The notes under the pieces were generated by a model. That model did not search any database. It was not told the origin of the DNA and was given only the letters and a program-made list of their open reading frames with translations. The translations under genes and the position numbers were made by a program. A DNA stretch of 64,000 bases from Cognaticolwellia beringensis (GTDB lineage Bacteria > Pseudomonadota > Gammaproteobacteria > Enterobacterales > Alteromonadaceae): NCBI RefSeq assembly GCF_002076895.1, contig NZ_CP020465.1, forward strand, positions 868,001 through 932,000. The letters run 5' to 3'. The first letter of the stretch is position 1; each line of letters begins with the position of its first letter. Below are positions 31,014-33,673 of this stretch, piece after piece.

Positions 31014-31445
31014 ATGAGTGAACAATTCCAATTACACCCTCAATTAGCAAATGACTGTTTTGTTATTACAGATTTTCCACTTTCTCGCTTATTGCTATGC
31101 AATGACAGTGCGTTTCCATGGTTTATTTTGGTGCCAAAAGTTGCTGATATTCAAGAGATATATCAACTTGATTGGCAACAGCAACAACAGTTATTAAATG
31201 AATCAAGCATGCTGAGTGAAGTGCTGATGCAGGAATTTAACGGTGATAAAATGAATGTGGCAGCATTAGGTAATGTCGTATCACAATTACATTTACATCA
31301 TATAGTACGTTTTGAAAGTGATGTCTGTTGGCCTAAACCTATTTGGGGACAACAAGCATTAACCCCATATAGCGATGAGCAACTTACGAGTATCAAAGAT
31401 CGTATTTTACCTAAGCTTGAAGCTATCCTATCAAACGACAGCTAA
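31014..31445 (+). CDS. HIT-family (histidine triad) protein
   Basis: 143 aa. HIT hydrolases cleave nucleotide conjugates such as dinucleoside polyphosphates or AMP-lysine. The C-terminal core reads QLHLHHIVRFESD, the histidine triad in its common Alteromonadales form, preceded by LNVAALGN-type sequence (MNVAALGNVVSQLH). W and P-rich end (CWPKPIWG) is also usual. Downstream of rbgA by 71 bases and closed by a strong terminator. Confidence 0.87.
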   Translation: MSEQFQLHPQLANDCFVITDFPLSRLLLCNDSAFPWFILVPKVADIQEIYQLDWQQQQQLLNESSMLSEVLMQEFNGDKMNVAALGNVVSQLHLHHIVRFESDVCWPKPIWGQQALTPYSDEQLTSIKDRILPKLEAILSNDS

Positions 31446-31477
31446 AATAAACCCAAAGCATAATTTTAATCATTTAT

Positions 31478-31504
31478 AAAGGCGACTTCAGTCGCCTTTT
31501 TTTG
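31478..31504 (+). terminator. Rho-independent terminator after the HIT gene
   Basis: Perfect 9-bp stem AAAGGCGAC / GTCGCCTTT, TTCA loop, T7 tract. Confidence 0.88.
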
Positions 31505-31671
31505 TTTATTTTTACAGGGAGACGAGAATGAGAAGGGCAGGAGTCTTTAAGTAAAAATGCATTTTTGATTTTTTTCTTATACTCCTCAATATTTTCTCCT
31601 TGTTAACATTTTTTATTTAATAGGACTATTTGGTGTTAAAACACGGCGATTAAATTCGCTCTACAAGTACT

Positions 31672-32421
31672 AATCACTTCTCGGTGTAGCGCAAAGCGCG
31701 CCTCTGCCGTTCTCGGTGGTAAAAAAATAGCTATAAGCTGTCAGTTTTAAGCTGTCAGTTAACTTCAAAGCCATGCGTGTGGTGTTTGTTTTAACTGAAT
31801 GCTGACAGCTTTGAACTTAAAACTTTTCTTGCGGCTAAAGCCACACCTACAATGTTAAATCACTGCTCGGTGTAGCGCAAAGCGCGCCTCTGCACTTCTC
31901 TGTGGTAAAAAATAGCTATAAGCTGTCAGTTTTTAGCTGTCAGTTAACTTCAAAGCCATGCGTGTGGCGTTTGTTTTAACTGTAAGCTGACAGCTTTGAA
32001 CTTAAAACTTTTTTGCGGCTAAAGCCACACCTACAATGTTAAATCACTGCTCGGTGTAGCGCAAAGCGCGCCTCTGCACTTCTCGGTGGTAAAAAAATAG
32101 CTATAAGCTGTCAGTTTTAAGCTGTCAGTTAACTTCAAAACCATGCGTGTGGTGCTTGTTTTAACTGAAAGCTGACAGCTTTGAACTTAAAACTTTTCTT
32201 GCGGCTAAAGCCACACCTACAATTTAAATCACTGCTCGGTGTAGCGCAAAGCGCGCCTCTGTACTTCTCGGTGGTAAAAAAATAGCTATAAGCTGTCAGT
32301 TTTAAGCTGTCAGTTAACTTCAAAACCATGCGTGTGGTGCTTGTTTTAACTGAAAGCTGACAGCTTTGAACTTAAAACTTTTTTGCGGCTAAAGCCACAC
32401 CTACAATTTAAATCACTGCTC
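31672..32421. repeat. Tandem array of four ~185-bp units with REP-like palindromes
   Basis: Units begin at the TCGGTGTAGCG motif at 31681, 31867, 32051 and 32236 (periods 186, 184, 185) and end in a truncated fifth at about 32421. Units are over 90% alike by eye. Each contains GCGCAAAGCGC, a block with AGCTGTCAG twice, its inverted partner CTGACAGCT about 60 bases on, and GGCTAAAGCC near the end. The last is the reverse of the GGCTTTAGCC core typical of REP elements. Each unit can fold into a long hairpin. No transposase is present nearby. Short reading frames inside are not coding. Confidence 0.9.
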
Positions 32422-32450
32422 GATGGTGAGTAATATTTTAATTTGGGGGG

Positions 32451-32478
32451 TGTTTAGGCGAGTTAATTCGCCTAAACA
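32451..32478 (-). terminator. Perfect hairpin just after the methionine gamma-lyase gene
   Basis: An 11-bp perfect stem (TGTTTAGGCGA with its complement) and a 6-base loop, 11 bases past the stop. On the minus strand it is followed by CCCCCC rather than a T tract, so it may protect the mRNA end rather than terminate by itself. Confidence 0.5.
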
Positions 32479-32488
32479 TGGAGTTTAA

Positions 32489-33673
32489 TTATTTAATCAA
32501 AGCTAGCGACTGGCTTAAGTCAGCGATTAAATCATCAACATTTTCAAGCCCAACGGATATTCTAATTAAACTATCGCTGATGCCTGCAGCTAAACGCTCT
32601 TCTTGAGTATAAGGCGAATGTGTCATTGAAGCTGGGTGTTGAATAAGAGATTCTGCGTCGCCCAAACTTACCGCAATTGAAAATAATTGCATACGGTTAA
32701 TAAAGTCACCGCCACCTGCTAAATCACTATTTATTTCAAACGCTATAACACCACCAGCCGCTTTCATTTGAGTACCAATAAATTTATGCCCTGGGTGGCT
32801 TTTTAAACCTGGATAATAAACATGACTAACGTTTTCATGGCTTTCTAAAAATTCTGCTATTTTTTCAGCATTGCTGCAGTGGCGCTCCATACGGATCGGC
32901 AAAGTTTTAAGGCCGCGCATGATCAACCAAGCGTCATGTGGACTCATCGTTGCGCCAATATCTTTTAAAACGGTCATTTTTATATTCATGATCATTTCAT
33001 TTGAACCACAAATGATACCGGCAACCACGTCACCATGTCCGTTTAAGTATTTTGTCGCGCTATGTACAACAATATCAATGCCATACTTTTTAGGCTGTTG
33101 TAATACAGGTGTTAAAAAGGTGTTGTCGACGACTGAAATAATATTGTGCTTTTGCGCGATTTGACCAATAACTGACAAGTCATATACGGCTAAATTAGGG
33201 TTGACCGGTGTTTCTAAAAAGATAACTTTGGTGTTTGGCTTTATAGCCGCTTCAATTTCAGCTGGATTCGCCATATCAACGAAACTGACTTCGATGCCCC
33301 ATCGTGTAAGTTGATGATTCATCAAGGCGAATGAACAGCCATAGACGGCTTTCGATGAAATTAAATGATCGCCACAAGATAAATTTGCCAGTAAAGCGCC
33401 TGATACTGCGCCCATACCAGTAGCAGTAGCCGCAGCGTCATCCATACCTTCCATTGCAGCTACGCGCATTTCGAGTTGACGAGTAGTTGGATTACCTAAG
33501 CGACTATAAATGTAGCCTTCAGCTTCTCCTGCGAATCTATCAGCACCTTGTTGTGCGTTATCGAAAATAAATGTAGATGTTTGATAAAGTGGTGTGGCTA
33601 GAGAGCCAAACTGCTCGTCATTAATGCGGCCTGAATGAATAGCTTGAGTTTCAATATGTTTACTGTCCGACAT
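32489..33673 (-). CDS. megL: Methionine gamma-lyase (Cys/Met metabolism PLP enzyme)
   Basis: 394 aa, PLP fold-type I. Splits methionine to methanethiol, 2-oxobutyrate and ammonia. The PLP lysine lies in VVHSATKYLNGHGDVVAG. The Cys in VYGCSFALMNHQ occupies the position of Cys116 of known methionine gamma-lyases, which separates them from cystathionine gamma-synthases and beta-lyases, where it is usually different; this and the GSLATPLYQTSTF start favour the lyase call. It is divergent from a TyrR-type activator with palindromes between, suggesting amino-acid-responsive control. Confidence 0.85.
   Translation of the reverse strand: MSDSKHIETQAIHSGRINDEQFGSLATPLYQTSTFIFDNAQQGADRFAGEAEGYIYSRLGNPTTRQLEMRVAAMEGMDDAAATATGMGAVSGALLANLSCGDHLISSKAVYGCSFALMNHQLTRWGIEVSFVDMANPAEIEAAIKPNTKVIFLETPVNPNLAVYDLSVIGQIAQKHNIISVVDNTFLTPVLQQPKKYGIDIVVHSATKYLNGHGDVVAGIICGSNEMIMNIKMTVLKDIGATMSPHDAWLIMRGLKTLPIRMERHCSNAEKIAEFLESHENVSHVYYPGLKSHPGHKFIGTQMKAAGGVIAFEINSDLAGGGDFINRMQLFSIAVSLGDAESLIQHPASMTHSPYTQEERLAAGISDSLIRISVGLENVDDLIADLSQSLALIK

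What the first reader, a model, noticed from the sequence alone, without database searches (positions are those of the whole stretch)
31672..32421. Four-copy 185-bp tandem array with paired REP-like palindromes
Units repeat at 184-186 bases with few differences and form long hairpins (AGCTGTCAG arms, GCGCAAAGCGC and the GGCTTTAGCC-type core). REP elements usually occur singly or in pairs; a regular array of this length between a HIT gene and megL is unusual. It could be a tandemly amplified REP/BIME element mobilised in trans by a REP-associated transposase elsewhere, or a transcribed hairpin array. Units contain no variable spacers.
Basis: partly seen in the sequence, partly recalled or inferred. 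Interest (0 to 1): 0.7.

Follow-up and report, generated by a model that had tools for sequence, protein, structure and literature searches.

The report
Tandem array of mosaic REP palindromes
A short mosaic of repeated DNA hairpins, of a kind known from other bacteria, has been copied four times head to tail in the gap between two genes of a Colwellia-type bacterium whose genome holds many similar arrays; it is a good example of a known phenomenon rather than a new system.

Summary
In detail: four head-to-tail copies of a 184-186 bp unit at 31672-32410, plus a partial copy, between a HIT gene and megL. Each unit is a mosaic of three palindromic repeats: REP A (GTAG foot, GCGCAAAGCGC, + strand), a long AGCTGTCAG inverted repeat ("element C", my name) and REP B (GTAG foot, GGCTTTAGCC, - strand). 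It is best read as a hybrid modular BIME. The genome holds 304 matches to a related REP pattern, at least 20 other REP arrays (18 with that REP, 2 with REP A) and a RAYT gene beside one of them. Relatives hold the parts as A+B or A+C, and this genome has one degenerate A+C+B copy elsewhere. The gap has no array in 16 of 16 genus relatives: a pre-existing mosaic was amplified here. Copies 3 and 4 differ at 2 columns, all other pairs at 8-10, which indicates stepwise duplication, probably by recombination or slippage between direct REP A copies (inferred). A RAYT role is unproven. In passing: 8 of 8 copies of an IS4-family element sit in REP hairpin loops.

The parts
31672..31857 (+). unit copy 1 (186 bp): REP A, element C, REP B
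31858..32041 (+). unit copy 2 (184 bp)
32042..32226 (+). unit copy 3 (185 bp)
32227..32410 (+). unit copy 4 (184 bp); 2 columns differ from copy 3
31680..31721 (+). REP A in copy 1 (further copies start at 31866, 32050, 32235): GTAG foot, GCGCAAAGCGC hairpin, CTCGGTG at both sides
31722..31825 (.). element C in copy 1 (further copies start at about 31907, 32092, 32277): AGCTGTCAG inverted repeat
   Evidence: DNA fold z -4.1; relatives in 13 of 16 other genus genomes by match to the unit, most of the listed matches lying in this part of the unit
31830..31851 (-). REP B in copy 1 (further copies at 32014-32035, 32200-32221, 32384-32405): TGTAGGTGTGGCTTTAGCCGCA
32411..32444 (+). partial copy: 5' lead and 3' tail of a REP A without its hairpin
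   Evidence: tail matches the REP A tail at 3517 kb at 22 of 26 bases; next best place in the window 18 of 26
31642..31666 (-). REP-like remnant just before the array (TTGTAGAGCGAATTTAATCGCCGTG)
   Evidence: read from the sequence; hairpin z -2.2; family assignment is inference
31478..31503 (+). intrinsic-terminator-like hairpin of the HIT gene
   Evidence: conserved in G003
32446..32482 (-). strong hairpin behind megL; not called as terminator (no T run)
   Evidence: z -9.3; absent from the terminator list; conserved in G003
31014..31445 (+). HIT-domain gene, left neighbour, ends towards the array
32489..33673 (-). Cys/Met metabolism PLP-dependent enzyme (megL-type), right neighbour, ends towards the array

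Best explanation
A hybrid modular BIME. A mosaic of two GTAG-footed REP elements of different families (A on +, B on -) around a third palindromic repeat (element C), followed by another REP A, stood in the gap between two convergent genes. The stretch between the direct REP A copies was then duplicated stepwise to four units, most likely by unequal recombination or replication slippage. Shown: the anatomy, the absence of the array in relatives, the part-combinations elsewhere, and unequal divergence of the copies. Inferred: the recombination or slippage step, and that the array has no dedicated function and is merely tolerated between convergent genes.
For: Order A(+) C B(-) four times, then a REP A remnant, that is direct REP A copies at both ends of the repeated stretch. 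Parts in other combinations: A+B without C in G009 (L136), A+C without B in G003 (L131), one degenerate A+C+B at 3518101 of this genome. No array in the HIT-megL gap of 16 of 16 genus relatives (68-198 bp) nor in the 30 of 42 named loci where megL follows (41-332 bp), against 1050 bp here. Copies 3 and 4 differ at 2 columns and all other pairs at 8-10, as expected of successive duplications. The same genome has 18 arrays with a related REP and 2 with REP A, several with two- or three-unit higher-order periods, as unequal exchange would leave. 10 of the 17 arrays with ORFs on both sides lie between convergent ORFs, and so does this one.
Against: No strain-level data on copy number. A one-step origin followed by partial homogenisation would also give unequal divergence. 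The exact insertion point is not fixed: up to about 165 bp in front of the array are also missing from the empty relative, and the alignment there is poor. In 20 x 20 kb samples, 3 of 7 arrays in this genome carried REPs but 0 of 3 did in the REP-rich G008, so REP content alone does not predict arrays in a sample of that size. The REP A and REP B hairpins alone are weak.
Confidence: 0.7

Rival explanations
1. RAYT-driven amplification: the REP-associated transposase nicks direct REP copies at their GTAG feet, a circular module forms, and rolling-circle copying makes the array (model of Nunvar et al. 2010, PMC2817692, discussion read).
For: The module (two direct REPs with an inverted one between) is the one from which that model starts. 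A RAYT is present, with REP copies on both sides. In the genus the short-type RAYT stands by REP copies in 5 of 5 loci, while 21 of 21 other Y1_Tnp loci have none. Some whole modules recur at distant loci, e.g. 102, 133 and 2235 kb, 88-90% over 265-688 bp.
Against: The REPs at the RAYT are of another subtype than the window's. G007, G011 and G012 hold 314, 164 and 66 REP matches with no such RAYT found, though their assemblies are in 160, 60 and 40 contigs. The copies were not made in one burst without later turnover.
Confidence: 0.2
2. The 185-bp unit is itself a mobile element (MITE-like) that inserted repeatedly or as a block.
For: A+C at 85-89% identity at other loci of G003 and a degenerate A+C+B copy at 3518 kb show that the mosaic, or its parts, moved at some time.
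Against: No second locus with the full unit above 70% in this genome; perfect head-to-tail register; I saw no target-site duplication around the array, but did not search for one systematically.
Confidence: 0.06
3. A transcribed array of hairpin RNAs.
For: Element C folds well, most of its 16 predicted pairs are kept in 17 aligned copies, and a terminator-like match lies in copy 2 at 31955-31968.
Against: No promoter-like match inside the array, and 2 terminator-like matches against 1.4 expected; no Rfam match near a gathering score; unfavourable covariation term, +0.46; the array follows the HIT terminator and is absent from relatives.
Confidence: 0.02

Closest known systems
Hybrid modular BIMEs of Stenotrophomonas (Nunvar et al. 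2010, PMC2817692; passages and discussion section read)
   Same: Tandem modules of regularly spaced REPs in alternating orientation, some with REPs of two families, with unrelated inter-REP segments and a RAYT gene beside one array.
   Different: The window unit also holds a third, non-GTAG palindromic repeat (element C), and its REP subtypes are not those beside the RAYT found here.
Tandem REPIN clusters of Pseudomonas fluorescens SBW25 (Bertels and Rainey 2011, PMC3116915; passages and one section read)
   Same: Tandem repeats that include flanking sequence; arrays of two REP types with a period of 184 bp (112 + 72); clusters beside RAYT genes.
   Different: Other host and REP sequences; no element C is mentioned in what I read.
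GTAG REP super-family (PMC3733652; passages read)
   Same: GTAG at one foot of a short palindrome; clusters frequent; association with RAYT genes.
   Different: The window's REP subtypes are few in this genome, and no Colwellia is named in the paper's main text (term count 0).
ISRm22 of Sinorhizobium meliloti (IS4 family; PMC1525189; passages read), compared with the IS4-family element noticed here
   Same: All copies (10/10 there, 8 of 8 here) inside REPs, at or about the palindrome axis.
   Different: 8-bp instead of 6-bp target duplication; other host; the two transposases were not compared here.

Membership tests
GTAG REP (window REP A and REP B) | GTAG at the foot of the palindrome | tested here: met
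   Read in all four copies of both
GTAG REP (window REP A and REP B) | short imperfect palindrome able to form a hairpin | tested here: met
   Both fold to the expected stem-loop, but only modestly better than shuffles: z -1.4 and -1.9
GTAG REP (window REP A and REP B) | high copy number in the genome | tested here: inconclusive
   The related REP pattern has 304 matches, control 0, but the window's exact REP B has only its 4 array copies, and REP A 6 matches to a 61-base query
Modular BIME | tandem modules with REPs in alternating orientation | tested here: met
   A(+) ... B(-), four times
Modular BIME | extragenic position | tested here: met
   Between HIT and megL, convergent
Modular BIME | mobilisation by a cognate RAYT | not testable with these tools
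   A RAYT is present, but its neighbouring REPs are of another subtype
RAYT (gene at 412055-412507, outside the window) | match to the REP-associated tyrosine transposase model over cut-off | tested here: met
   NF047646, 122.8 bits, cut-off 80; Y1_Tnp 32.8 bits, cut-off 23
RAYT (gene at 412055-412507, outside the window) | flanked by REPs | tested here: met
   REP copies on both sides in L033
Known structured RNA family | Rfam match over the gathering score | tested here: not met
   11 matches up to E 1 in 31400-32600, best 23.2 bits against gathering 47 and 55

The most novel reading that the evidence does not exclude
Element C is an undescribed mobile palindrome family of this genus that fuses with GTAG REPs of two families into three-part mosaics, and the RAYT (HUH) chemistry acts on GTAG feet of more than one REP family, amplifying whatever lies between two direct REPs; the twenty or so arrays of this genome would then be a natural record of such amplifications.
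Probability: 0.15. Interest if true: 0.5.

Novelty: new member of a known kind. Interest (0 to 1): 0.3.

Why it matters
It documents a REP/RAYT/BIME system in the Colwellia group, for which my three literature searches showed no description (one paper, listing only; 22 papers, 10 listed, listing only; one paper on Y1 HUH proteins, PMC6006769, whose passages do not name Colwellia). About twenty arrays in one genome, sister species with the parts in other combinations, and REP-rich genomes with and without a RAYT make an open question testable: do BIME arrays grow by transposase action or by ordinary recombination and slippage?

Tried and rejected
Rfam search of the array region: 11 matches up to E 1, all below their gathering scores. 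RNA covariation of element C over 17 copies that I picked from BLAST hits (two of them from the window array): 16 pairs, 4 with any two-sided change, covariation term unfavourable. Sampling to ask whether tandem arrays go with REPs (20 x 20 kb each, period 60 or more): 3 of 7 arrays in G000 carried REPs, 0 of 3 in G008, 0 of 2 in G001, 0 of 3 in G004; too few to conclude, and two of the sampled stretches that rang (L201, L211) overlap regions that I already knew to hold REPs. My first idea that the 1.3-kb inserts in arrays were IS110 elements was wrong: they are IS4 family. The Y1_Tnp genes at 678, 681 and 2891 kb have no REP-B near and were set aside. A search for slippage and BIMEs listed mostly unrelated papers.

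Limits of counts: pattern censuses list only the first places, so arrays were taken from listed places; the 20 arrays are regions that I fetched because they held repeats, not a genome-wide census, and listed clusters at 992, 1207, 1316, 3182 and 4449 kb are not among the 20. The BLAST of the unit in relatives scored at most 13 candidates per genome, so its counts are lower bounds. One search examined 26 of the 28 rows; the other two are second fragments of genes already counted. An earlier count gave 31 and 10; the right figures are 30 and 12 (recounted). The genus genomes and the named loci overlap in part.

Full report
WHAT IS THERE. Four head-to-tail copies of a 184-186 bp unit occupy 31672-32410, followed by a partial copy to about 32444. 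Of 186 aligned columns 171 are invariant; copies 3 and 4 differ at 2 columns, every other pair at 8 to 10. The window is 868001-932000 of a 4.66 Mb single-contig genome. Of 42 named loci that encode a relative of the HIT protein, 36 are titled Colwellia or Cognaticolwellia, the other six Alteromonadaceae, Thalassotalea or Moritella, so the host is of that group; its own name was not given.

ANATOMY. Each unit holds three palindromic pieces. REP A (+ strand): CTCGGTGTAG, a GCGCAAAGCGC hairpin, then CTCTGC...CTCGGTGG. Element C (my name): about 100 bp with AGCTGTCAG arms, which fold well as DNA (z -4.1). REP B (- strand): TGTAGGTGTGGCTTTAGCCGCA. Both REPs have the GTAG foot of the GTAG super-family (PMC3733652, passages read). 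The order is A(+) C B(-), four times, then a REP A remnant whose tail matches another REP A of the same genome at 22 of 26 bases; the next best place in the window has 18. A REP-like remnant stands just before the array (31642-31666).

SURROUNDINGS. The array lies between the 3' ends of two convergent genes, HIT and a megL-type enzyme. A terminator-like hairpin follows HIT; a strong hairpin follows megL (z -9.3) but has no T run and was not called a terminator. Both hairpins are kept in relative G003 (31 of 37 and 32 of 38 bases) with no array between them. The alignment between the hairpins is poor, so the exact insertion point is not fixed, and up to about 165 bp before the array are also extra. 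G003 has the same intergenic sequence as the record of Cognaticolwellia sediminilitoris KCTC 52213, L092. The gap is 68-198 bp in 16 of 16 genus relatives (11, 5) and 41-332 bp in the 30 of 42 named loci where megL was found behind HIT; in the other 12 it was not found in the fetched stretch. Here it is 1050 bp.

GENOME-WIDE CONTEXT. The REP pattern TGTAGGTYGGNNTTYANNCCRTCA (up to 1 mismatch) has 304 matches in this genome and 0 in the control. In the genus 11 of 17 genomes have it: G007 314, G000 304, G011 164, G008 142, G016 73, G012 66, G003 59, and 2 to 4 in G002, G014, G009 and G005; six have none. A narrower pattern outside the genus gave only a few matches per genome, close to the control, except 10 in G059. 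In the 23 regions that I fetched, with the window array, Tandem Repeats Finder shows about twenty arrays of inverted REP pairs, mostly with periods of about 100-190 bp and 2 to 11 copies, several with higher-order periods of two or three units. The 18 of them with REP-B hold 209 matches to a similar pattern (sum). Linkers look mostly array-specific: of 231 pairs of array sequences 6 share a stretch over 100 bp at 80% or more, one of these being the two parts of the 424-426 kb array; the 102, 133 and 2235 kb arrays share a module at 88-90% over 265-688 bp. The window array shares 23-24 bp with two REP-B arrays, 178 bp at 70% with the 3517 kb REP A array and 49 bp at 82% with the 4454 kb one. 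Of 20 arrays, 17 had ORFs of 110 aa or more on both sides: 10 convergent, 6 co-directional, 1 divergent; in three of the 17 one neighbour is the IS transposase.

MOSAIC HISTORY. The parts occur in other combinations: A+B without C in G009 (L136); A+C without B in G003 (L131, 86-89% over the 148 bp of REP A and C; L144 holds a REP A tail plus C); and one degenerate A+C+B copy at 3518101 of this genome, at the end of a REP A array. So the mosaic existed before it was amplified here. The structure A-C-B-A' with direct REP A copies is a substrate for tandem duplication by unequal recombination or slippage, and the divergences of the copies fit stepwise growth. This step is inferred.

RAYT. One gene, 412055-412507, 150 aa, scores 122.8 bits against NCBIfam NF047646 (REP-associated tyrosine transposase, cut-off 80) and has REP copies on both sides. 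Across the genus, 5 of 26 examined Y1_Tnp loci have REP copies in the fetched stretch of about 3.2 kb: G000, G002, G003 and G008 (149-150 aa) and G016 (interrupted by a stop). The other 21 have none. Only the G000 protein was run against NCBIfam; the others are called the same type from length and their first residues. G007, G011 and G012 are REP-rich with no such gene found; their assemblies are fragmented. The REPs at this RAYT are not of the window's subtype: the exact window REP B occurs 4 times in this genome, all in the array, and in G003 once exactly and once with 1 mismatch. PMC6006769 (passages) says that there is in general one full-length transposase gene for each REP type. Hence this RAYT is a candidate, not a demonstrated mobiliser.

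COMPARISON. Nunvar et al. 2010 (PMC2817692) described modular BIMEs, some hybrid with REPs of two families, with unrelated inter-REP segments, and proposed a RAYT rolling-circle model that starts from two direct REPs with an inverted one between (passages; discussion). Bertels and Rainey 2011 (PMC3116915) described tandem REPIN clusters and two-family REP arrays. The window array is a new member of this kind, in a group for which my searches showed no report; that is not proof of absence.

SIDE FINDING. An element with an IS4-family transposase (NF033591, 291 bits against 152) has 8 matches in the genome, all full length at 100%. The 8 copies share an identical 1290-bp block, and 8 of 8 lie in the loop of a REP hairpin with an 8-bp duplication: ACTTTAGT, GCTTTAGC, ACTAAAGT or GCTAAAGC. 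ISRm22, also IS4 family, is a precedent with 10/10 (PMC1525189, passages).

VERDICT. Real, explained in kind, and modestly interesting as a test bed.

Noticed in passing
G000 at 102864, 132731, 376309, 1207632, 1693463, 2236076, 2268463, 4450285 (loci L188-L195): IS4-family element, 8 copies sharing an identical 1290-bp block, 8 of 8 inserted in the loop of a REP hairpin with 8-bp target duplications. ISRm22 is a published precedent.
   Followed up: yes
G000 about 395-470 kb (e.g. L073), with similar clusters in G002, G004, G008 and G014: Element C matches and REP arrays cluster in stretches of tens of kb. In L073 the ORFs look, by my reading and not by a family search, like sugar-nucleotide and sulfate-activation genes. 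A Thauera paper notes REP arrays beside exopolysaccharide genes (PMC3733652, passage).
   Followed up: partly
window 31478-31503 and L155 (G003): In G003 the hairpin behind HIT reads CGTAGGGGCGACTTCAGTCGCC plus T run, i.e. it looks like a REP serving as terminator; the window has the same hairpin without the GTAG foot.
   Followed up: no
L076 at 944189-944833 and L069 at 357243-357430: A 148-bp array of 4.4 copies whose unit shows no TGTAGG foot, directly beside a REP array, and a perfect 51-bp array of 3.7 copies just before another REP array.
   Followed up: no
L075 (G000 678-681 kb): Two Y1_Tnp genes interrupted by stops, with no REP-B near.
   Followed up: no
L078 at 1202711-1203247: A 141-bp array of 3.7 copies that looks like repeated tRNA genes (by eye, not run through the tRNA finder), just behind a REP array.
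   Followed up: no
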